Positions 2,077-28,205 are shown, numbered from the stretch's first letter. The stretch: DNA of 39,430 bases from a virus (IMGVR_UViG_3300030090_001724:1-39430), one strand, 5' to 3'. Notes: generated by a model from the letters alone, not told the origin. Program-made: numbers and translations.

Positions 2077-2916
2077 ATGGCAGAATCAGTAGTAAAAAAA
2101 GAGCAACAGCAAGTTGCGACACTAGATTTCAGTATGGTGGAAGCCGACTCAGGTCTAGGTAATAAAGAAGTCGATCAAGAGACTTTGAGTATTCCGTTTT
2201 TAAAAACTAATTTATCAAAGCAGATACTTGAAGCTAATCGAGGATCTGTATCAGGTGATATGTATAATACAGTGACTGGTGAGATCTACGATAGAGAGAA
2301 AGGCGTGTTGGTTTTACCTTGTGTATTTCAAAGACGTTTTATTCAATGGTCTCCTCTTGGTGATGAGCAGAGTGCACCAATAGCTATATATTCAACAAAA
2401 GAAGAGTGTCCAGCTACAGAAAGATCTAAGGAAGATAATAAAGAATATCTTACCGATGGGTCAGGTCACTACATCGAAGACACTCATCAGCATTACTGTT
2501 TAATTATTAAGACTGATCAAAACGGTAAGCCGACTGGAGCTACAGATGCTGTTATGATTGCTATGAAGAGCACTTCTTTAAAAGCAAGTCGTAAATGGAA
2601 TAGCATAATATCCACAAGACGTAAGCAGAAAGCTGACGGATCTATGTTTATACCGCCAAGGTTTTTATATACTTACAGTCTTGGCACTTACATGGAAAGT
2701 GGACGTAAGGGTGACTATTTTGTTTGGGACATGAAGCTGAAAGAGGAGCTGACTAATATAAACCTTTATAATGAGGCCAAGGCTTTTGCTTTATCTGTTG
2801 AGCAGAATAATGTTGATGTGAAGTATGAACAAGATGAACCTCAAGCAGAAGCACCAAAGCCTGCAACACCGCCGAAAGCTGAAAGCAAAGGCGGTCAAGG
2901 AAATATGCCATTCTAA
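2077..2916 (+). CDS. Probable single-stranded DNA-binding protein
   Basis: 279 aa. The central region (about 35-235) is mixed alpha/beta with many basic and aromatic residues. The C-terminal 45 residues form a low-complexity acidic, Pro-rich tail (DEPQAEAPKPATPPKAE) ending in GNMPF. The last residues resemble the MPF/IPF tip through which bacterial SSB recruits partners; that resemblance and the place between replication genes are the reasons for the call. No OB-fold signature can be proven by eye. The start directly follows the upstream stop, and its last base overlaps the primase start. Confidence 0.55.
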   Translation: MAESVVKKEQQQVATLDFSMVEADSGLGNKEVDQETLSIPFLKTNLSKQILEANRGSVSGDMYNTVTGEIYDREKGVLVLPCVFQRRFIQWSPLGDEQSAPIAIYSTKEECPATERSKEDNKEYLTDGSGHYIEDTHQHYCLIIKTDQNGKPTGATDAVMIAMKSTSLKASRKWNSIISTRRKQKADGSMFIPPRFLYTYSLGTYMESGRKGDYFVWDMKLKEELTNINLYNEAKAFALSVEQNNVDVKYEQDEPQAEAPKPATPPKAESKGGQGNMPF

Positions 2917-4445
2917 TGTGGGAGGCTTTTAGTTCAATATTTGACGGACTAGAAGAGGCGTTTGGCACTTATAAGATAGATAAGACCCAAACCAATGGTA
3001 AGAAGTCCGGTAGAGCGGCTCTCGTGAGGGAGCCACGGACCAAGGATCATTGGGTGGGTCATCTGTCAGGTAAAGGGGACTCTCTAGGTATCATACCAAT
3101 CAATGCACGGTCACAGTGTAAGTGGGGTTGTATTGATATTGATACCTATCCTCTTGACCATAAAGTTCTTGTCGAGAAGATAAGAAAAGTAAAACTACCA
3201 CTGGTTGTATGTCGTTCCAAAAGTGGTGGGGCACACTGCTTTCTATTTAGCGAAGACTGGGTAGAAGCAAAAGATATGCAACAAACCTTACAACATATAT
3301 CAGCTGCTCTTGGCTACGGTCAAAGCGAGATATTTCCAAAACAGATTAAATTACATTTAGATCGTGGCGATGTAGGTAATTTTTTAAACTTACCGTATTA
3401 TGACGCAGAAAGTGGCCTTAGGTACGCGATAAAGGATGACGGCACCTCCGCTACCTTAGAAGAGTTTATCGCTCTGTACGATCAATATAAGCTCAATAAC
3501 GAGCAGATACTAGCATTACAAGTAGAAGATATAAAAGATACACCAATCAAAGATGGTCCACCATGCTTACAGACTTTATGTGAAAGTAAAATCAGTGAGG
3601 GTGGACGTAACAACGGATTATTTAACCTTGCTGTTTATTTACGCAAAGCGTTTCCTGACAGCTGGGAAACAGAGATACTAACCTACAACATGACCTATCT
3701 TGATCCACCATTACCATTAAGTGAGGTTAACCTTGTTGCCAACCAAGCTAAGAAGAAAGACTATGCCTACAAATGCACAGATAGTCCGATCAATGCACAT
3801 TGTAACAAAGAGCTGTGCAGAACACGATTACATGGCGTAGGGTCGGCCGTACAAGGGGCAACAGTCGCTAATTTAAGAAAATATAACTCAACACCGCCAG
3901 TTTGGTTCTTGGACGTCTCAGGGGAGCCCCTAGAGCTAGACACAGAAGCACTGCTATCACAACCTACGTTTCAGAAAGCTTGCATGGAACAGCTTAACTT
4001 CATGCCACGCTCTGTACGAAAAGAGACTTGGGAAGCACGGATCAGTGCTTTGCTTAACGAGATGAAAGAAAACGATGCAGCTATCATAGAAGTAGCTGAA
4101 GACGCAAGCACGAGTGGACAGTTCTACGATTACTTAGAAGAGTTTTGCAGACACTTACAGCAAGCACAGGAAAGAGAAGAGATATTGTTAAGAAGGCCTT
4201 GGACCGATGAAGAGGCACACTTAACTTATTTTCGACTAAGAGACTTTGAAAACTTTCTTAAGAAGAATAAGTTTTTTGAGTACAAGTCGCACAAGATTGC
4301 CCAACGCTTACGGGATATTAACGGGTCCAGTACGGTTATGAAAATCAGTAACCGATCCGTACGCGTTTGGGCAATACCCGCACACCGTAACACGGATCAG
4401 GAGTTTAATACACCAAATTTACAAACAGAAGAGGAGCCTTTTTAA
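2916..4445 (+). CDS. DNA primase, archaeo-eukaryotic (AEP) type
   Basis: 509 aa. The N-terminal domain carries the AEP signature: CIDIDTY with two metal-binding Asp (74, 76), then SKSGGAH (101-107) matching the sxH nucleotide-binding motif. Next comes a helical PriCT-like region with GGRNNGLFNLAVYLRKAF (229-246). Cysteines 217, 287, 296 and 301 could bind zinc or an Fe-S cluster. The family closest by eye is the primase domain of TOTE-type systems and phage primases. It would make RNA or DNA primers for the polymerase at 7059. It overlaps its neighbours by one base at each end (TAATG-type junctions), so it is probably translationally coupled. The C-terminal 170 residues are unassigned. Confidence 0.8.
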   Translation: MWEAFSSIFDGLEEAFGTYKIDKTQTNGKKSGRAALVREPRTKDHWVGHLSGKGDSLGIIPINARSQCKWGCIDIDTYPLDHKVLVEKIRKVKLPLVVCRSKSGGAHCFLFSEDWVEAKDMQQTLQHISAALGYGQSEIFPKQIKLHLDRGDVGNFLNLPYYDAESGLRYAIKDDGTSATLEEFIALYDQYKLNNEQILALQVEDIKDTPIKDGPPCLQTLCESKISEGGRNNGLFNLAVYLRKAFPDSWETEILTYNMTYLDPPLPLSEVNLVANQAKKKDYAYKCTDSPINAHCNKELCRTRLHGVGSAVQGATVANLRKYNSTPPVWFLDVSGEPLELDTEALLSQPTFQKACMEQLNFMPRSVRKETWEARISALLNEMKENDAAIIEVAEDASTSGQFYDYLEEFCRHLQQAQEREEILLRRPWTDEEAHLTYFRLRDFENFLKKNKFFEYKSHKIAQRLRDINGSSTVMKISNRSVRVWAIPAHRNTDQEFNTPNLQTEEEPF

Positions 4446-17370: not shown

Positions 17371-18036
17371 ATGTTAAAAACTACAATATATAAAAAGAAC
17401 ATTTTTGAATTAGAAAATTATCAATTCAAAATATTAAAACCTAGTACAAATAAAAAACTTGGTAAAAAAGTTTTAAAAGGCAAATATAAAAATTATAAGT
17501 TTGTAACTTTAACACTTGTAGAGCGTGAGACTTGCCCGAAAGATTGTATCCATTGGCTAGATTGTTACGGCAACAACATGCCATTTGCACACCGAATAAG
17601 TGCAAAAAATGAACAGCTTTTAGAACAAAGAATTTACAACGATTTATTAAACAGTACTAATCAACTTTTATTAATTCGATTGCATATTTTAGGCGATTTT
17701 TTCAGCGTGAAATATGTTAAATTTTGGCGTAAAATGTTAAACACTTTTAATAATATTGCTTTATATGGATATACAGCAAATAATATTAAATCATCTATTC
17801 CACTATCAAGAGCAATAGCAAAAGAGATTATTAAGCTTAATAATAATGAACATTGCCACATTAGATTCAGCAATGATTTAAAAGCTTCATTTAGTGCTAA
17901 TTCATACGATGTTGTTAAACCTGTTAAAGGCGTATCAATATTATGTCCAGTACAAGAAAATAAAACCGCTAATTGTGGAACTTGCGGACTATGTTGGAAT
18001 CAAAAAGACCAGCAAATTATATTTAAAACGCATTGA
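17371..18036 (+). CDS. Cys-rich Gp88-like phage protein
   Basis: 221 aa. ETCPKDCIHWLDCYG (about 53-67), RLHILGDFFSVKYVKFWRKML (about 104-124) and CGTCGLCW near the end recall the Gp88-type family first named in mycobacteriophages, where a T-C-P...C-Y, a GDF and a C-x2-C-x2-CW motif recur. The eight or so cysteines suggest a metal or Fe-S site. An enzymatic role on nucleic acids has been suspected by analogy but is not shown. It is a one-gene unit with its own composite promoter/terminator. The family name is from memory of the motif. Confidence 0.6.
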   Translation: MLKTTIYKKNIFELENYQFKILKPSTNKKLGKKVLKGKYKNYKFVTLTLVERETCPKDCIHWLDCYGNNMPFAHRISAKNEQLLEQRIYNDLLNSTNQLLLIRLHILGDFFSVKYVKFWRKMLNTFNNIALYGYTANNIKSSIPLSRAIAKEIIKLNNNEHCHIRFSNDLKASFSANSYDVVKPVKGVSILCPVQENKTANCGTCGLCWNQKDQQIIFKTH

Positions 18037-18936: not shown

Positions 18937-20391
18937 ATGGATGGTAATAGACACGACGAGAGACGCTTAAAACTAGAACTAAGACTAGCTCAGTTAGAGA
19001 AGAACGAAGCTTGTAAAAATAACTTTTTATCATTTGTTAAAACCATATGGCCGTCTTTTATACAGGGCCGTCACCATGAGATCATTGCAGAGAAATTAGA
19101 ACGAGTTGCGAATGGGGAACTAAAGAGACTTATTATCAACATGGCACCAAGACATACGAAGTCAGAGTTCGCATCCTTTTTGTTTCCAGCATGGATGATG
19201 GGCAGAAACCCAAATATGAAAATCATTCAGGCAACACACACAACAGAGCTTGCAGTAAATTTTGGGCGTAAGGTAAAAAATCTTTTGGACACGGATGAGT
19301 TCCATGAAGTTTTTCCAGAAGTTAAACTTGCAGCTGATAGTAAAGCGTCAGGAAGATGGGATACAAACAAGGGTGGTATGTACTATGCCGTAGGTGTGGG
19401 ATCAAACTTAGCTGGTCGTGGTGGTGATCTTGTTATTATCGACGATCCACACTCAGAACAAACTGCGATGAGCAACAATGGCTTTGAAGATGCCTGGGAT
19501 TGGTACACTGGGGGCCCTCGACAGAGACTACAACCCGGTGGCACGATCGTCTTAGTGCAGACCCGATGGTCCGAAAAGGATTTAACTGGTCAGTTAATAC
19601 GTTCTATGGCTAAAGACCCGTTGGCCGATCAGTGGGAAATCGTGGAACTCCCTGCAATATTCGAGAGCGGTGAGCCTTGTTGGCCCGAATACTGGAGCTT
19701 GAAAGACTTAACGGCTGTAAAAGCGTCAATACCTCCAAGCAAATGGAATGCTCAGTACCAGCAGCAGCCAACGGGCGAAGAGAATGCTATAATTAAACGT
19801 GAATGGTGGCAAAGATGGGAAAAAACAAGCGTACCGAACCTACAATATGTCATTCAGAGCTACGATACAGCTTTCTCGAAACGTGAAACAGCAGATTTTA
19901 GTGCGATTACGACGTGGGGCGTGTTTTATCCAGAAGAAGAAGGCGGTCAACCCGCTCTGATTTTGCTTGATAGCAAAAAAGGACGGTGGGATTTTCCAGA
20001 ATTGAAGGAATTAGCGTTAGAAATGTACAATTATTGGGACCCCGAGACAGTAATCGTTGAGGCTAAGGCGTCAGGTATGCCCTTGACCCACGAATTACGG
20101 AATATGGGCATTCCAGTTGTCAATTTCACACCGAGTAAAGGTAACGATAAGGTATCAAGGGTACATTCTGTGTCTCCGTTGTTTGAAGCGGGCATGGTTT
20201 GGGCCCCCGATGAAACTTTTGCAGACGAAATGATAGAAGAGGTTGCAGCTTTTCCAAATGGAGAGTATGATGACCTTGTAGATAGTATGACACAAGCCTT
20301 AATGAGGTACCGTCAGGGTAATTTTGTACAGTTGCCGAGTGACGATTGGGGCGATGAGGTTGATTCTGTCAAAGTTAGAGCGTATTATTGA
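18937..20391 (+). CDS. terL: Terminase large subunit
   Basis: 484 aa. The ATPase half has the variant Walker A MAPRHTKS (69-76), Walker B LVIIDD (165-170) and the coupling motif VLVQTRWSE (205-213). The nuclease half has SYDTAF (D310), VIVEA (E375) and DDLVDSMTQAL (445-455), giving the three acidic metal ligands. It is the motor that moves DNA into the prohead and cuts the concatemer. RHTKS in place of the classic GKT is typical of this branch of phage terminases. The ATG at 18937 follows AGGGG within a palindrome. The predicted promoter at 18866 suggests it starts the late genes. Confidence 0.96.
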   Translation: MDGNRHDERRLKLELRLAQLEKNEACKNNFLSFVKTIWPSFIQGRHHEIIAEKLERVANGELKRLIINMAPRHTKSEFASFLFPAWMMGRNPNMKIIQATHTTELAVNFGRKVKNLLDTDEFHEVFPEVKLAADSKASGRWDTNKGGMYYAVGVGSNLAGRGGDLVIIDDPHSEQTAMSNNGFEDAWDWYTGGPRQRLQPGGTIVLVQTRWSEKDLTGQLIRSMAKDPLADQWEIVELPAIFESGEPCWPEYWSLKDLTAVKASIPPSKWNAQYQQQPTGEENAIIKREWWQRWEKTSVPNLQYVIQSYDTAFSKRETADFSAITTWGVFYPEEEGGQPALILLDSKKGRWDFPELKELALEMYNYWDPETVIVEAKASGMPLTHELRNMGIPVVNFTPSKGNDKVSRVHSVSPLFEAGMVWAPDETFADEMIEEVAAFPNGEYDDLVDSMTQALMRYRQGNFVQLPSDDWGDEVDSVKVRAYY

Positions 20392-20398
20392 GGATAAA

Positions 20399-20809
20399 AT
20401 GGCTAAATCAGTAGTAAAAAATGCAACCAAAGAAACGATAGAGGAGCTACCAGAGATCGACATATTTGATCGTTTGATGGATAGAGCAACACAGCCCGAA
20501 GTCTTTGATTTAAGAGAAGAACAGTACGAGGGTATGGCACCACCTCTTTATGATGTTGACATAGGTGATATTACTTATGAAGCTCCAACAGAACTACCGA
20601 TGGAATCAGAGGGTATCCGTTCAATAGGACTTGGTATGGGTGGTAATGCCGGTATTGAGACTTTGAAGCAAACAACCATACAGCTACAAGAGATCCCACC
20701 TGACAGAAACATGACAGTTTTAAAAAGAATGATGAAACAAGCAGGGGCCCCGGCACAGGACCCGAAGCTCTTAGCTCAAGTTTCACAAGTTTTAGGAAGA
20801 GATGACTAG
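20399..20809 (+). CDS. Conserved small acidic protein between terminase and polyvalent protein
   Basis: 136 aa. I chose the ATG at 20399 behind GAGGA; the frame is open earlier only within terL. Acidic N-terminal half (ATKETIEELPEIDIFDRLMDR), a Gly-rich stretch (SIGLGMGGNAG) and a helical end (VLKRMMKQAGAPAQDPKLLAQVSQVLG). It overlaps the next gene by eight bases. Not recognised; by position it may be a virion or head-assembly protein. Confidence 0.7.
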   Translation: MAKSVVKNATKETIEELPEIDIFDRLMDRATQPEVFDLREEQYEGMAPPLYDVDIGDITYEAPTELPMESEGIRSIGLGMGGNAGIETLKQTTIQLQEIPPDRNMTVLKRMMKQAGAPAQDPKLLAQVSQVLGRDD

Positions 20810-23675
20810 CTATTTAGCAAAACAGCAAGCTTACAAAGAAGATCCGGAAGCATTTGCGGAAGGACAATATTTTGGTGCTTCTATGATGCCCGTATCAGGT
20901 GAAGCTATAGCGGCTTACGAGCTACCGGGTATTTTATCTCAAGCTAAAACTTTAATGCAAGATCCGGACTACAAAAAGGCGTTGTTAGGTCTTGGCTTAG
21001 GTATATTAGGCACAGCTTCGGTTGCTCCGGGCGTAGGTCCTTTTGCAAGAGGTGCCAAAAGAGGACTTGAGGGTTTCATTCCTTATCTTGGTCCAAAACC
21101 AGCAGCGGAGGGTGTAGACACTTCTATCTTGATGGCAGGGTTTGGTAAAGACCCAACAAAATCAACTCCTGGAAAAGTTCCTGACATAGAAAAAGCAAGA
21201 GAGCTTGGTCAGGAAGAGCTCTTTCCTTCAGCTGTAAAAAAAGAAGATCAGAAAGAAGAATTAAGTTTTGCCACAAAAGGTGATGAAACATATAGTTTGG
21301 GGCCCGGTAGTTTGTTTAACCCGGAAACAAAACAAGGACGTAAGCTTTTGATCATATCCTGTAGCGAAACAAAATGCCCTGATGATAAGGACATGAAAGC
21401 GATAGATAGATACTTAGGTCCTGTTTTTCAAACGCTTAAAGCTCAAGGTGTCCCAGAAAACGTAGATGTCGCTATTATGTCCGCGAAACACGGACTTATA
21501 AGATCGAACACCCCATTGAAAAACTATAATGAGAAAATGACAAAAGCAAAAGCTCAGGCATTTAAAAACGATCCTGATCAATTAAACAGGATTAGAAATA
21601 CCATGATGGGGTACGACAAGGTTATTGTGCAGGGCGGGAAAGACTATAAGGACGTTCTAAGAACAGCTGCTGGAGATCTGAAGATTAATGAGATACCGGG
21701 TGGCAGGGGCATAGGCGATCAACGAGAATTTGTCATGGACGCCATTAATCCTTTTAGAAAAATTAAAACACCGGTTTATCATTTTACTTTAAATCCAGGT
21801 TTCACGAAATTTGATAAATCAAAGCAAGCTTTGTATGATTTTGGACCTCATGTATCTTCTACTCCAAAAGGAGCTCAAGATCGTTTTGTAAGTCAAGTTG
21901 GAGGCGTAACCACAAAAGACGGAGAGTTAATTCTGAAAACAGATTCAGATTTAAAAGGCGGTTCAATCCCTTTAAAAGCTAATTTGACTAGACCTTTTAA
22001 TAATCCAAACACTAAAAAGCCTTTTACTGAAGGTGAACTTATGGACTTTAAGGTTGAAAGGCTAAAAAAAATATTAGGAGATAATTTTACTAAAGATGAT
22101 TTGTTATTAGAAACAGACAACTTTAGCGTGACAGAAATTAGAAACGCTATTGATAAAGTTTCTAAAGATTTAGCAGAAAAAGGTTTTACCCATGTTCCTT
22201 ATGTAAATGAGTTTGAAGATAAAGGTCAGTTATCTTTTGAGATGTTAATAGACCGACCCAAAGGCAAGCCGAAGGTTTTGCAGGGAACCTTTGCTAAGAA
22301 AGACCCTGAAGCTTTTGACGATCCAGACTTTATGATGAAAGCAGGCGGCGTGGTTGAAATGAAAGACAAGGCAATCAATATGAACCGCGGCCCACGGGGC
22401 ATAGGACCTTTTGCACAGTATCTTGAAACTGGAGGTGAGGTTCAGCCAGAAAGAAATATATTTGAAGAGCAAGCTCCAAAAATAATTCCTGCCAAGACAG
22501 AGGCAGAGGCTCTTTCAGAACTTGCTGACCAGGAAATGGGTTTAGAATTAATTAACAGGGTAGGCTTTGATCCACTGGCTTACAAAATGATGCAAGCTGG
22601 TTTGAGAGATAACAGAACTTTATCTGATTTTTTGACAATATATCCAACAGTAACGGACGATATGACCGAAAAACAAAAAAAAGACGCTTTAACAGAACAA
22701 ATAAGAGGTCTGGGTATTGCTAGAGGTATGTATTTTCCTTTGGATAATATGGTAGTCGTAGAGCCAATGACCGTAGCAGATGATTATTTTCAAAGTCCTA
22801 CTGATATGATAATTATGCACGAAATTTTACACAAGGGAGCAGAAACTTTAAAAAAAGATCCTAACGTAAATATAAAAACTTTGAGAGAAAAGTTAGACAC
22901 AGATGATTATGCAAACATAGGTGATGAAACAAAACCCGGTCGTGCTGAACATAGATTCATCCAAGCTATAGTTAACAAAGCTTATGTAGATAATATGCTA
23001 ACACAGTCTTCAATTTACGCTAACAGAGCTATTAATGAGGCTCGAAAAATTTTAAATGATCCAAAATCTGATGATTTTAAAAAAGAGCTCGCAGAAGATG
23101 CTATAAAATTTGAATCTAAATATGTAGAGAGAAATCAAAAGAGAGCTTTATTAAAAGAAATTAGACGATCTACAGACTTCTACATGGAGCAATCAGGTAA
23201 AAATAAATTTAAACAAGAAATGAATAATATGTATCCCGACAGAGGTTTATTTAATGAAGATGCAGAGGATGTAGAAAATAATTTTACATTAAAAGAATTA
23301 AAACAAATATTTAATTTACTTAATACTACGATGTTGGACCAACCAGGCACTAAAGAATTTGTTTTGGAAATGTCAAAGTCAGCTCCAGCTGGTGCATCAA
23401 TCAAAGGTTATTCAGATCTTTTTCCTACTCAGTTTGCAGATCCAACCAAACCTTATTTCAATGAACGACGAAAAAGAACATATGACTTAGAAGGAATTGA
23501 GGACCCAAGCTATATTCAAGTTATGAGTGCAAGAAGTAAATATTTAGAAAAAATGAGAAAAGATAGAGAAAAACAAAATAAGGCTAAAGGCGGCGTGGTT
23601 GAAATGAAAGATAAAGCTGTTAATATGTTTAGAGGTACACAAGGTATTGAACCTTTTATCAAATATATGGTATAG
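20802..23675 (+). CDS. 957-aa multidomain 'polyvalent'-type protein (YaaA/DUF6884-like + ADP-ribosyltransferase-like + HExxH)
   Basis: In order: a hydrophobic Gly-rich segment (61-80, LLGLGLGILGTASVAPGVGP); a YaaA/DUF6884-like domain (about 180-290) with LLIISCSETK and IMSAKHGLI; an ADP-ribosyltransferase-like domain (about 322-485) opening TPVYHFTLNPGFTKF, with DFGPHVSSTPKGAQDRF as the usual second block and a Glu (E480) in the last strands; a motif GGVVEMKDKA...GIGPF (515-537); a zincin-like segment with HEILH (673-677) and further His/Glu downstream (E716, H717); a helical part; and a second copy of the motif at the very C-terminus (930-957). Such domain mixtures are known as polyvalent proteins, thought to be injected with phage DNA to counter or reprogram the host. 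It lies between terL and portal, fitting a virion protein. Domain calls are by eye. Confidence 0.7.
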   Translation: MTSYLAKQQAYKEDPEAFAEGQYFGASMMPVSGEAIAAYELPGILSQAKTLMQDPDYKKALLGLGLGILGTASVAPGVGPFARGAKRGLEGFIPYLGPKPAAEGVDTSILMAGFGKDPTKSTPGKVPDIEKARELGQEELFPSAVKKEDQKEELSFATKGDETYSLGPGSLFNPETKQGRKLLIISCSETKCPDDKDMKAIDRYLGPVFQTLKAQGVPENVDVAIMSAKHGLIRSNTPLKNYNEKMTKAKAQAFKNDPDQLNRIRNTMMGYDKVIVQGGKDYKDVLRTAAGDLKINEIPGGRGIGDQREFVMDAINPFRKIKTPVYHFTLNPGFTKFDKSKQALYDFGPHVSSTPKGAQDRFVSQVGGVTTKDGELILKTDSDLKGGSIPLKANLTRPFNNPNTKKPFTEGELMDFKVERLKKILGDNFTKDDLLLETDNFSVTEIRNAIDKVSKDLAEKGFTHVPYVNEFEDKGQLSFEMLIDRPKGKPKVLQGTFAKKDPEAFDDPDFMMKAGGVVEMKDKAINMNRGPRGIGPFAQYLETGGEVQPERNIFEEQAPKIIPAKTEAEALSELADQEMGLELINRVGFDPLAYKMMQAGLRDNRTLSDFLTIYPTVTDDMTEKQKKDALTEQIRGLGIARGMYFPLDNMVVVEPMTVADDYFQSPTDMIIMHEILHKGAETLKKDPNVNIKTLREKLDTDDYANIGDETKPGRAEHRFIQAIVNKAYVDNMLTQSSIYANRAINEARKILNDPKSDDFKKELAEDAIKFESKYVERNQKRALLKEIRRSTDFYMEQSGKNKFKQEMNNMYPDRGLFNEDAEDVENNFTLKELKQIFNLLNTTMLDQPGTKEFVLEMSKSAPAGASIKGYSDLFPTQFADPTKPYFNERRKRTYDLEGIEDPSYIQVMSARSKYLEKMRKDREKQNKAKGGVVEMKDKAVNMFRGTQGIEPFIKYMV
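22338..22412 (+). repeat. Internal copy of the GGVVEMKDKA motif
   Basis: Codes for residues 513-537 of the 957-aa protein and matches 23583-23657, including an identical run of over 20 bases at the 5' part. It separates the transferase-like and metallopeptidase-like parts. Confidence 0.8.
23583..23657 (+). repeat. C-terminal copy of the GGVVEMKDKA motif
   Basis: Codes for residues 928-952, ending five residues before the stop. Third-position changes beyond the identical core show protein-level conservation. Confidence 0.8.
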
Positions 23676-23694: not shown

Positions 23695-26100
23695 ATGGCA
23701 GATAAACCAAGCATGGTGGATAAAGTTCCAACTCAACTAGATGAAGAAGAACTTAAAGCTGAAATGGATGTTGAAATACCTGAGGGTATGGACATTAACG
23801 AAATACCAGACAACGTAGAGATTGTGGAAGAAGAAGATGGCAGTGTAGTCGTTGATTTTGACCCTCGTGAAAATAAGGGTATGGACGGTGACTTTTATGC
23901 TAATTTAGCAGAAGATATGTCCGATGAAGAGCTTGGCCGTTTGTCAGGTGAGTTAACAGGTGAGTTTGAAGAAAACAAAAGCAGTAGACAGGAGTGGGAA
24001 GATGCCTTTGCCAATGGTCTTGAATTACTTGGATTTAGTTACGAAGAAAGATCCCAACCCTTTAGGGGTGCCAGCGGAGTTACTCATCCATTACTTGCAG
24101 AGTCCGCTACACAGTTCCAAGCACAAGCTTTTAATGAGCTCCTTCCACCGGGCGGTCCAGTTAGAACTCTTGTCATGGGAACAAGCACACCAGAAAAAGA
24201 AGATCAGGCTCAAAGAGTAAAAGAATTTATGAATTACTACATAACTTCTGTTATGGAAGAATATACGCCTGAGTTTGACCAGATGCTGTTCTATTTGCCA
24301 CTTGCAGGCTCAACCTTTAAAAAAGTTTACTACGATGAGAACTTAGATAGAGCTGTCAGTAAGTTTATACCGGCTGAAGATTTAGTTGTACCCTACAGCA
24401 CATCTGATCTAGAGACCTGTCCTAATATTACTCATGTTGTCAAAATGAGCTTAAATGATCTCAGAAAAAGACAACTATCGGGTTTTTACAGAGATATACC
24501 TGTTATACCAGCACAAGGCGAAACTTCTTCTGTCAAAGAGGAGTTAGAGCGTATAGACGGTATGTATCCATCTAATGTCGATTATGATTGTACTTTACTT
24601 GAGTGTCATGTGGATTTAGACCTTGAAGGATTTGAAGAAGAGAATGAGGAGGGCGAAGCAACGGGGATCAAGGTACCTTACGTTGTAACGATTTCTCAGG
24701 ACAACGGTCAGGTTTTATCTATACGCAGGAATTATAAAGAAGACGATGAGAAAAAGAAAAAGATACAATATTTTGTACATTACAAGTTTTTACCGGGGTT
24801 CGGGTTCTACGGACTAGGGTTAATACATACCATAGGCGGACTATCAAGAACCGCGACAGCTGCACTAAGACAGTTAATCGATGCAGGAACGCTATCAAAC
24901 TTACCAGCAGGATTTAAGGCCCGCGGCCTACGGATCAGGGATGATGACGAACCGTTACAGCCCGGAGAGTTTAGAGACGTCGATGCACCGGGGGGAGATA
25001 TCAAAGCCAGTCTTATGTCTTTACCTTTTAAGGGTCCAGACCAAACATTGATGGCACTTTTAGGCTTTGTAGTTGACGCTGGACGGCGATTCGCAACGAT
25101 TACAGACATGAAAGTAGGCGATGGTAATCAGCAGGCAGCGGTCGGTACTACGATTGCTATGTTGGAACAAGGCTCACGGGTCATGTCAGCTGTGCACAAA
25201 AGATTGCATTATGCCATGAGATTGGAATTTAAACTGCTCGCTAATGTTATGGCTGAGTTTTTACCAGACAGTTATCCTTACACGATTGCAGGCGTGGACA
25301 GTTCAGTAAAGTCAGAAGACTTTGATGAAAGAGTAGATGTGCTGCCTGTATCTAATCCTAACATCTTTTCGCAAGCTCAGAGAATAGCGTTGGCACAGAC
25401 CAAGATGCAGATGGCCACAGCAGCACCTGAAATGCACAATATGTATGAAGTATTTAGAGATATGTATGAGGCATTGGGTGTAAGAGATATTGACAGAATA
25501 CTGAAAAGAACACCTGAGCCAGAAGCAGAGCCAAAAGATCCCGCTTCAGAAAACATAGATGCTTTAGATATGCTGCCTTTGGTAGCTTTTGAGGGTCAGG
25601 AGCATGAAGCTCATATCATGTCACACATGGTTTTTGGTTCAACACCCCTTGTAGCAGGCACACCGCAGATTGCAGTATCTTTACAGAAGCATATTATGGA
25701 TCATGTGAGAATAAGTGCCAGAGAAAAAGCAGCTGTGGAGATGATACAAAGCAGTGGTGGTCAGGCGTTGTCAGAAGAGCAGATGCTCGATGTGGAAGCA
25801 AAAACAGCTCAATATGTCGCAGAGGGCATGACAGCCTTGAAACAATTAAGTGCTCAACTATCGGCACCAGGCCCTGATCCGTTAGTACAACTAAAGGAGA
25901 AGGAACTTCAAGTCAGAGCACAGGCTGAACAGAATGATGCACAGATTGATGCGGCTAAATTAGGTCTTGAGCAGCAGAAAGTACAGCAAAGAGACGCTCA
26001 GTTTGATAAGCGACTTGATAGTCAGGAAAGACAGACTGCTGCTAGAATTAATGCAGCTGAAAGGCGTGAAATGATGAAACAACAAAAAGGAGGTCAGTAA
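23695..26100 (+). CDS. Portal protein (large form)
   Basis: 801 aa. The acidic N-terminal 95 residues lead into WEDAFANGLELLGFSYEERSQPF, GASGVTHPLL and ESATQFQAQAFNELLPPGGP (about 101-155). These, and the middle block around LSRTATAALRQLIDAGTLSNLPAG, are the signature of the long portal proteins of marine short-tailed phages. The C-terminal 150 residues are Gln/Ala-rich and helical (LEQQKVQQRDAQFDKRLDSQERQ), likely the barrel or crown that projects into the head. The dodecamer forms the DNA entry vertex and binds terL and the adaptors. GGAAGGAG precedes the ATG. Confidence 0.9.
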   Translation: MADKPSMVDKVPTQLDEEELKAEMDVEIPEGMDINEIPDNVEIVEEEDGSVVVDFDPRENKGMDGDFYANLAEDMSDEELGRLSGELTGEFEENKSSRQEWEDAFANGLELLGFSYEERSQPFRGASGVTHPLLAESATQFQAQAFNELLPPGGPVRTLVMGTSTPEKEDQAQRVKEFMNYYITSVMEEYTPEFDQMLFYLPLAGSTFKKVYYDENLDRAVSKFIPAEDLVVPYSTSDLETCPNITHVVKMSLNDLRKRQLSGFYRDIPVIPAQGETSSVKEELERIDGMYPSNVDYDCTLLECHVDLDLEGFEEENEEGEATGIKVPYVVTISQDNGQVLSIRRNYKEDDEKKKKIQYFVHYKFLPGFGFYGLGLIHTIGGLSRTATAALRQLIDAGTLSNLPAGFKARGLRIRDDDEPLQPGEFRDVDAPGGDIKASLMSLPFKGPDQTLMALLGFVVDAGRRFATITDMKVGDGNQQAAVGTTIAMLEQGSRVMSAVHKRLHYAMRLEFKLLANVMAEFLPDSYPYTIAGVDSSVKSEDFDERVDVLPVSNPNIFSQAQRIALAQTKMQMATAAPEMHNMYEVFRDMYEALGVRDIDRILKRTPEPEAEPKDPASENIDALDMLPLVAFEGQEHEAHIMSHMVFGSTPLVAGTPQIAVSLQKHIMDHVRISAREKAAVEMIQSSGGQALSEEQMLDVEAKTAQYVAEGMTALKQLSAQLSAPGPDPLVQLKEKELQVRAQAEQNDAQIDAAKLGLEQQKVQQRDAQFDKRLDSQERQTAARINAAERREMMKQQKGGQ

Positions 26101-27595: not shown

Positions 27596-27799
27596 ATGTC
27601 AAAAAGTGAGATTTATCTTGCAGAAGCGGTTTTTCGTATTATAAATGAAAGAAAGAAACAAATTTCTGAGGCTTTGTTGTACGACAGCGTAAAAAATATG
27701 GAGCAGTATCGACAGCTCATGGGTGAAAGAAAAGCTTTAGAGTATGTTGATGAGGAACTAAAAAGTTTACTGGACCGTCAGGAGAAAGACGATGAATGA
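27596..27799 (+). CDS. Small helical protein before the co-chaperonin gene
   Basis: 67 aa, all helical and charged (YLAEAVFRIINERKKQISEALL; YRQLMGERKALEYVDEELKSLLDRQ), likely coiled coil. Overlaps the next gene by eight bases. Not recognised. Confidence 0.65.
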   Translation: MSKSEIYLAEAVFRIINERKKQISEALLYDSVKNMEQYRQLMGERKALEYVDEELKSLLDRQEKDDE

Positions 27800-28205
27800 T
27801 ACAGCATTAGACAAAATGTATGTAGAGCCCCAAGAAAGGGTCTTAGACCCGAGTTTAGCAGATCAGAGCCTAATAGACCGGATGCCAAGTCCAACGGGCT
27901 GGAGGCTGCTTATTTTGCCTTACAGGGGTAAAGGAAAAACAGAGGGTGGTTTATACCTTCCAGATAAAGTTGTTGAAGACAACCAAATATCTACACAAGT
28001 TGGATTTGTTTTAAAGATGGGTCCTATGGCTTACAAAGATCCAGAGAAGTTTCCTAGTGGTCCTTGGTGTGCGGAAAAAGACTGGGTGATGTTCGCACGA
28101 TACGCAGGTTCAAGATTTAAAATAGACGGTGGTGAAGTTAGAATACTGAACGATGATGAGATTTTAGCCAAAATACAAGAACCTGAAGATATTTTACATT
28201 TTTAA
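27792..28205 (+). CDS. GroES-like co-chaperonin
   Basis: 137 aa, against about 97 for GroES and 111 for T4 gp31. SPTGWRLLILPY (33-44) is the first strand; GKGKTEGGLYLPDKVVEDN (46-64) fits the mobile loop that docks on GroEL; then TQVGFVLKMGPMAYKD, DWVMFARYAGSRFKIDG and VRILNDDEILAKI complete the Cpn10 beta-barrel. It probably replaces host GroES so that host GroEL can fold the major capsid protein, as gp31 does in T4. Its place directly before scaffold and capsid supports this. It has an extra N-terminal 30 residues. Ribosome binding site GGAG. Confidence 0.88.
   Translation: MNDTALDKMYVEPQERVLDPSLADQSLIDRMPSPTGWRLLILPYRGKGKTEGGLYLPDKVVEDNQISTQVGFVLKMGPMAYKDPEKFPSGPWCAEKDWVMFARYAGSRFKIDGGEVRILNDDEILAKIQEPEDILHF

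What the first reader, a model, noticed from the sequence alone, without database searches (positions are those of the whole stretch)
20802..23675. A 957-residue polyvalent-type protein between terminase and portal: YaaA/DUF6884-like, ADP-ribosyltransferase-like and HExxH modules in one chain
Seen: LLIISCSETK and IMSAKHGLI about 40 residues apart (180-233); TPVYHFTLNPGF with DFGPHVSSTPKGAQDRF (322-362); HEILH at 673-677. Known: proteins that mix ART, peptidase and base-modification-related domains (polyvalent proteins) are carried by phages and conjugative elements and are thought to enter the host with the DNA to act against defences. Inferred: this is a virion-borne effector that acts in the first minutes of infection. 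The combination with a YaaA/DUF6884-like domain in a short-tailed marine phage is, to my knowledge, not described as a unit.
Basis: partly seen in the sequence, partly recalled or inferred. Interest (0 to 1): 0.85.

Follow-up and report, generated by a model that had tools for sequence, protein, structure and literature searches.

The report
Phage effector with swappable enzyme cassettes
A large protein encoded between the DNA-packaging genes of an uncultivated marine phage is a chain of enzyme-like modules, and comparing near-identical phages shows that whole modules are swapped or dropped at fixed points, one of them a short repeated tag, which suggests a quickly re-tooled set of weapons carried into the host cell.

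Summary
A 957-aa ORF (20802-23675) lies between terminase and portal and holds the three modules named. (1) Residues 183-308 are a bona fide DUF6884 domain (E=2e-9): CxxxK/SAxxG motifs, YaaA-like fold, DpdC relatives. (2) Residues 323-495 are an ADP-ribosyltransferase-like (ART) domain. No library hit falls on the window itself; support is Foldseek matches to polyvalent ARTs and sub-threshold PF18760 matches in two related loci. Its conserved H...H signature is not the H-Y-D of known polyvalent ARTs. (3) HEILH (673-677) is invariant across 14 relatives, but zincin membership is unproven.
A 28-aa tag (GGVVEMKDKAxNMxRGxxGIxPF) closes each unit. In near-identical phages the HExxH unit is gained or lost exactly between the two tag copies. 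The ART core is replaced wholesale (portal 95-99% identical, ART about 56%), with the left breakpoint within -1 to +4 codons of the VYH motif in 15/15 pairs from three backbones; 46 loci carry 18 ART classes against 6 portal clusters.
Best reading: a head-packaged polyvalent-type effector precursor with exchangeable cassettes. Packaging, injection and all enzyme activities are inferred. New variant of a known kind.

The parts
20802..23675 (+). Slot gene: 957-aa modular protein between terminase and portal
   Evidence: conserved position in related loci
18937..20391 (+). Terminase large subunit (upstream neighbour)
   Evidence: PF17289 E=1.4e-7, phrog_38 E=8e-110
20354..20809 (+). Small variable ORF between terminase and the slot gene; its stop overlaps the slot ATG
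   Evidence: sequence; 133-355 aa in relatives; no family found
20802..20891 (+). N-terminal leader (aa 1-30), replaced by an unrelated leader in L003
   Evidence: blastn blocks against L003 end at 20804 and resume at 20889
20979..21047 (+). Hydrophobic Gly-rich segment (aa 60-82), possibly membrane-active
   Evidence: sequence only; inference
21348..21725 (+). DUF6884 / YaaA-like domain (aa 183-308) with CxxxK (187-191) and SAxxG (227-231)
   Evidence: PF21818 E=2e-9, phrog_5935 E=3.5e-13, Foldseek YaaA/AF0587 prob 1.00, PADLOC PDC-M57A and DpdC
21768..22286 (+). ART-like core (aa 323-495): H327 of VYHFT (strand 1), H350 (strand 2), R361, E472, S478 conserved; exchangeable cassette
   Evidence: alignments A1, A8, A10, AF2 model, Foldseek to polyvalent ARTs, breakpoints
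22344..22427 (+). Tag copy 1 (aa 515-542, GGVVEMKDKAINMNRGPRGIGPFAQYLE)
22428..23588 (+). HExxH unit (aa 543-929), presence/absence cassette; HEILH at 22818-22832, AEHR at 22944-22955
   Evidence: alignment A5; absent between tag copies in L047 and L043
23589..23672 (+). Tag copy 2 (aa 930-957, GGVVEMKDKAVNMFRGTQGIEPFIKYMV), C-terminus
23695..26100 (+). SU10-type portal (downstream neighbour)
   Evidence: PF23899 E=6.7e-11, phrog_1216 E=1e-56

Best explanation
The gene is a polyvalent-type effector locus in the packaging operon. It makes one precursor: N-leader with hydrophobic segment, DUF6884 DNA-base/lesion-handling domain, ART-like domain, tag, HExxH metallopeptidase-like unit, tag. Shown: the module anatomy, the DUF6884 identity, the wholesale exchange of the ART core between nearly identical phages at fixed joints, and the exact in-frame gain or loss of the HExxH unit between the two tag copies. 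Inferred: the protein is made late with terminase and portal, packaged in the head and ejected with the DNA. The ART-like domain then modifies a host target with ADP-ribose (the module under strongest pressure to change). The DUF6884 domain acts on bases or lesions in DNA. The HExxH unit, when present, cuts the precursor or a host protein. The tag DNA serves at least as a homologous recombination joint; the tag peptide may in addition be a sorting or processing signal.
For: DUF6884 above cut-off with both signature motifs, YaaA-like fold and DpdC relationship (PMC11888242). ART: Foldseek E=1.5e-3 and 5.9e-3 (prob 0.99 and 1.00) to proteins annotated ART-PolyVal-like / PolyVal ADP-ribosyltransferase; related loci L143/L144 match PF18760 over 103 of 140 positions at E=1e-5 and 2e-6 per record, below the cut-off. 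HExxH: invariant in 14 relatives, and other HExxH-bearing units (HELMH, HELAH, HETQH) occur in relatives. Cassette exchange: portal 96-99%, HExxH unit 95-96%, ART 55-57% identity against L003, L004, L009; 173 of 221 locus pairs with portal at least 95% have ART below 70%; 18 ART classes vs 6 portal clusters in 46 loci; left breakpoint within -1..+4 codons of VYH in 15/15 pairs. Tag joint: L047 equals the two flanks of L004 joined in a 41-nt shared tag core, and L043/L003 likewise with 28 nt. Packaging-operon position and the head-packaged-effector theme: PMC5512222, PMC9503650.
Against: No proteomic or expression data for this phage; virion presence is untested. The ART-like domain has no Pfam or PDB sequence hit of its own, hhalign to reference ARTs is weak (P about 0.01), and its strand-2 residue is His, not Tyr. 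The peptidase model is low confidence (pLDDT 50), its PDB search gave nothing, and the third zinc ligand is unidentified. The compared pairs are not independent, so the counts are not probabilities.
Confidence: 0.6

Rival explanations
1. The protein is a morphogenesis or structural factor (assembly protease, scaffold or ejection-channel component) that acts inside the virion or during assembly; the enzyme-like domains serve assembly and are not delivered effectors.
For: Terminase-portal operon position; HExxH unit as a possible processing protease; hydrophobic N-terminus; some ART relatives carry tape-measure-like segments.
Against: A structural part should track its capsid and portal, yet the ART core is replaced while the portal stays 95-99% identical and the HExxH unit is dispensable. 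The isolate HTVC023P has only a 201-aa protein here.
Confidence: 0.17
2. A nucleic-acid repair package: the ART-like domain belongs to the H-H-h clade (KptA-like, acting on RNA ends or small molecules) and, with DUF6884, repairs host-damaged tRNA or DNA lesions rather than attacking host proteins.
For: Conserved His residues sit on strands 1 and 2; the H-H-h clade is mainly RNA repair and small-molecule chemistry (PMC9503650); DUF6884 member YfjM binds DNA lesions (PMC11701544).
Against: Rapid cassette exchange is unusual for a housekeeping repair enzyme. Foldseek matches are to polyvalent ARTs; KptA was not among the listed PDB matches. The third residue is unassigned.
Confidence: 0.15
3. The tag is kept for a peptide function (head-packaging signal or protease site); recombination inside it is a by-product of having repeated sequence.
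For: Tag peptide ends nearly every unit, C-terminally and internally, and is conserved beyond the 23-nt identical DNA core.
Against: A looser GG-box is only weakly enriched in slot proteins of other phages (2.2-fold, p=0.07), so no general sorting signal was shown. Some C-terminal tags are truncated (GGVIGLKDKAVNMYRNRL).
Confidence: 0.35
4. The ART divergence is in-place diversifying selection, not cassette exchange.
For: Effector domains can evolve fast; the pairs are not independent.
Against: Identity at all codon positions falls from 89-96% to 51-65% within a few codons of VYH in every qualifying pair and recovers near or before the tag, strongly so in 7 of 15; length differences of up to 46 aa; one ART class sits on different portal backbones.
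Confidence: 0.07

Closest known systems
Polyvalent proteins of phages and conjugative elements (Iyer et al. 2017, PMC5512222)
   Same: Several disparate enzyme-like domains in one chain, ART-like and HExxH units among them, in a terminase-portal phage next to packaging genes; module shuffling.
   Different: YaaA is not mentioned in that paper's main text. The ART active-site signature differs (H..H, not H-Y-D). Tag-bounded, in-frame exchange of modules between near-identical phages was not found described in the papers searched.
ART-PolyVal (PF18760) / Tox-ART-HYD2 ARTs, e.g. Roseovarius Plymouth podovirus 1 vRNAP
   Same: Order of motifs YHxT, FxxFD, G-x-[YFH], A..[DR], G[FY]; fold matches; related loci L143/L144 match PF18760 sub-threshold.
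   Different: His replaces Tyr/Phe on strand 2; the aligned Asp of GYDG is Thr; invariant Glu in NxxE; no direct HMM hit on the window.
DUF6884 (PF21818), DpdC, YfjM, YaaA
   Same: Fold, CxxxK and SAxxG motifs; weak DpdC HMM match.
   Different: Embedded in a multidomain phage protein; TGT/DpdA and QueC genes absent from the window and six related records, so self-made 7-deazaguanine DNA is not its likely substrate.
T4 Alt and the internal-protein strategy
   Same: Proposed logic: ART packaged in the head and injected.
   Different: Alt is of the R-S-E clade; packaging of the present protein is unproven.

Membership tests
DUF6884 (PF21818) | Profile match above the gathering score | tested here: met
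   38.2 bits vs 30, aa 183-308
DUF6884 (PF21818) | CxxxK and LSAxxG motifs (PMC11701544) | tested here: met
   CSETK and (M)SAKHG; C, K, S, A, G invariant in A3
DUF6884 (PF21818) | YaaA-like fold | tested here: met
   5caj and 2q07 prob 1.00, E 6e-3 and 3.6e-3
ART superfamily | ART fold | tested here: inconclusive
   AF2 pLDDT 80 for the two-domain model; BFVD matches to annotated polyvalent ARTs; no ART among the 50 listed PDB matches, which the DUF6884 half dominates
ART-PolyVal / HYD2 | Profile match PF18760 | tested here: inconclusive
   none in the window; two related loci match at 20.5 and 21.4 bits, below the 31.2 cut-off
ART-PolyVal / HYD2 | H (strand 1), Y (strand 2), D (strand 5) active site | tested here: not met
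   H kept, Y is His, D not at the aligned place
ART H-H-h clade | His in strands 1 and 2, hydrophobic third residue | tested here: inconclusive
   both His conserved; third residue unassigned
Zincin-like MPTase | HExxH | tested here: met
   invariant in 14 sequences
Zincin-like MPTase | Third zinc ligand (Glu) and beta-sheet/helix core | tested here: inconclusive
   hairpin before the helix in a low-confidence model; E of AEHR is Ala in L016, the following His is invariant
Zincin-like MPTase | MPTase-PolyVal profile PF18818 | tested here: not met
   no match, but the RPP1 control with a reported MPTase also gives none, so the test is weak
Polyvalent proteins | Two or more unrelated catalytic-type domains in one chain | tested here: inconclusive
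   three modules present; only DUF6884 passes a curated cut-off
Polyvalent proteins | Encoded by a portal-terminase phage near packaging genes | tested here: met
Polyvalent proteins | Packaged in the virion and injected | not testable with these tools
   needs mass spectrometry and ejection assays

The most novel reading that the evidence does not exclude
The terminase-portal slot is a dedicated effector-exchange locus. Short in-frame repeats (the tag) and conserved joints (VYH and MLxDRPKG) let phages swap ART cassettes and add or drop a peptidase unit by ordinary homologous recombination, giving combinatorial diversity of injected enzymes on an otherwise nearly unchanged phage.
Probability: 0.45. 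Interest if true: 0.78.

Novelty: new variant of a known kind. Interest (0 to 1): 0.62.

Why it matters
Polyvalent proteins are known mostly as static domain lists. Here the exchange is caught between phages whose portal proteins are 95-99% identical, with breakpoints mapped to codons, so two questions become testable: what drives replacement of an ART-like effector, and whether a repeated in-frame tag is a recombination joint, a packaging signal or both. The relatives include pelagiphages HTVC023P and HTVC027P, which have a cultured host, so the slot could be studied in a living system.

Tried and rejected
Pfam, NCBIfam and PDB sequence searches for the ART and HExxH parts: nothing significant. 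hhalign of the ART alignments to reference ARTs from roseophages and a crAss phage: the later run aligned YH.T/F..FD/G in register, but scores were weak; kept only as minor support. AlphaFold of the HExxH unit: unusable, and its PDB fold search was empty as expected. MPTase-PolyVal search: negative, but the positive control also failed, so given little weight. Hypothesis that a GG-box marks virion proteins in general: 2.2-fold enrichment in slot proteins, p=0.07, dropped. Hypothesis that DUF6884 serves a phage-made 7-deazaguanine pathway: TGT and QueC absent from seven records, dropped. Expression timing of the same slot in HTVC027P: the paper's main text does not name these genes. ART-core relatives in bacterial genomes: one contig only, a Rhodobacteraceae MAG.

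Full report
1. What is there. The ORF 20802-23675 encodes 957 aa. It starts inside the stop of a small ORF (ATGA overlap) that follows the large terminase, and it is followed by an SU10-type portal. The nearest isolates by terminase include phage 023Pt_psg01 and pelagiphages HTVC027P and HTVC023P (55-63% identity); the host of the window phage is unknown. No isolate phage record holds this protein; the only phage matches (28-32% identity, 11-22% of the length) are Burkholderia phage proteins over the DUF6884 part and its surroundings. In the environmental virus collection, 24 loci encode relatives, and where the flanks are covered the gene lies between terminase and portal.

2. DUF6884 module. 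PF21818 matches aa 183-308 at 38.2 bits against a cut-off of 30; phrog_5935 agrees. The family motifs CxxxK and SAxxG are invariant in 15 relatives (motif definition from PMC11701544). AlphaFold of aa 167-514 gave mean pLDDT 80; Foldseek ranks AF0587 (2q07) and E. coli YaaA (5caj) first, and vaccinia uracil-DNA glycosylase chains are frequent further down. PADLOC gives a candidate-defence family and DpdC (E=3e-4). Published work places DpdC in DUF6884 (PMC11888242) and gives it a role converting dPreQ0 in DNA (PMC12839542). The window and six related records have no TGT/DpdA or QueC, so a phage-made 7-deazaguanine substrate is unlikely. Action on DNA bases or lesions is an inference from these relatives.

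3. ART-like module. In 27 relatives (mean column identity 30%) G-x-H (strand 2), A and R after it, P, E, and later T, P, Y, N-x-x-E, S and M-L are invariant; the strand-1 YH motif is conserved where the alignment covers it. The strand order in the model is compatible with an ART. BFVD matches include a protein annotated PolyVal ADP-ribosyltransferase (167 aa, prob 1.00, TM-score 0.51 by target length) and ART-PolyVal-like proteins. The related loci L143 and L144 match PF18760 over positions 8-110 of 140 at E=1e-5 and 2e-6 per record, below the curated cut-off. Direct sequence searches with the window domain found nothing. Compared with roseophage and crAss ARTs, strand 2 carries His instead of Tyr/Phe, and Thr stands at the aligned Asp (register judged by eye). 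By the published scheme (H-H-h, H-Y-[EDQ], R-S-E; PMC9503650) the H..H pair looks like H-H-h, but the third residue is not assigned. I therefore call it ART-like and do not file it in ART-PolyVal/HYD2.

4. HExxH unit. HEILH is invariant in its HExxH residues in 14 relatives with 34-96% identity to the window, including variants written HEVLH and HELMH. It follows a GxYxPxxN hairpin. The Glu of AEHR, a third-ligand candidate, is Ala in L016; the next His is invariant. The model is poor and PF18818 is negative, with a failed control. Zincin-like is a reasonable reading, not a demonstrated one. Other HExxH-bearing units occur in relatives: HELAH (L019, L066, L076, L095) at the same place between tags, and HETQH (L073) upstream of DUF6884.

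5. The tag and the mosaic. A repeat GGVVEMKDKAxNMxRGxxGIxPF ends the ART unit (aa 515) and the whole protein (aa 930). In relatives it ends nearly every unit, internally and at the C-terminus. At DNA level L047, a short form, matches the left flank of L004's first tag and the right flank of its second: the two blastn blocks (L004 5707-7722 and 8927-11572, 95% and 92% identical) overlap in L047 by 41 nt, which is the tag core; L043 behaves the same against L003 with 28 nt. Gain or loss of the HExxH unit by recombination in the tag is the simplest account; the direction is not known.

6. ART cassette exchange. Against L003, L004 and L009 the portal is 96-99% identical and the HExxH unit 95-96%, but the ART 55-57%. 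Over 221 locus pairs with portal at least 95%, the median identities are portal 97, HExxH unit 95, DUF6884 84 and ART 56; 173 pairs have ART below 70%. Forty-six loci hold 18 ART classes and 6 portal clusters, and the same ART class occurs on different backbones. Change-point analysis on codon alignments puts the left breakpoint within -1 to +4 codons of VYH in all 15 qualifying pairs, from three portal clusters (identity 0.89-0.96 before, 0.51-0.65 after). The right breakpoint falls about 30-36 aa before the tag in seven pairs, at the end of the ART core, with strong support, and near the tag in most others. The pairs share members, so these are descriptions, not probabilities. In some pairs the N-terminal leader differs as well.

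7. Same slot in isolates. HTVC027P carries two unrelated proteins there (483 and 892 aa), 023Pt_psg01 two, DSL-LC04 a PcfJ-like protein (PF14284 E=5e-9), and HTVC023P only 201 aa. The slot therefore tolerates quite different contents.

8. Interpretation. A large, multi-module, packaging-operon protein with exchangeable enzyme-like cassettes fits the polyvalent-effector concept (PMC5512222) and the observation that phage ARTs cluster with terminase and portal genes (PMC9503650). New here, as far as the searches show: the DUF6884 partner, the H..H ART-like variant, and exchange of modules at fixed joints including a repeated in-frame tag. Packaging, injection, ADP-ribosylation and proteolysis remain predictions.

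Noticed in passing
window 2916-4445: Primase with an AEP-TOTE domain (TOTE conflict-system primase family, PF22548) and PriCT_1 in the replication module.
   Followed up: no
window 27792-28205: Phage-encoded Cpn10/GroES co-chaperonin (PF00166, E=1.5e-9) upstream of the capsid gene, also annotated in related isolates.
   Followed up: no
L116 9430-11907 (DSL-LC04): The same terminase-portal slot holds a PcfJ-like protein.
   Followed up: partly
L010 1030-1458, L028 1485-1997, L073 964-1821: Further unassigned modules replace or flank DUF6884 in relatives; the L073 insert has LLHETQHLVDFIEG...GEVRAR, like zincin units of polyvalent proteins.
   Followed up: partly
L143, L146, L152, L160, L165: ART-like relatives in other viral contigs are fused to a segment like VRDDIPARLSEGEYVVPADVVRYFG that matches hypothetical proteins of HMO-2011 and Roseobacter CRP phages, and tape-measure families in some.
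   Followed up: partly
window 20354-20809; L015 4866-5930: The small ORF between terminase and the slot gene is itself highly variable in length (133-355 aa) and unassigned.
   Followed up: no
L190 4635-6038: A Rhodobacteraceae MAG contig carries a slot protein of this family, probably a phage contig binned with the host.
   Followed up: no
window 17371-18036: Protein with a GP88 match (PF17338, E=4.9e-7), upstream of the terminase.
   Followed up: no
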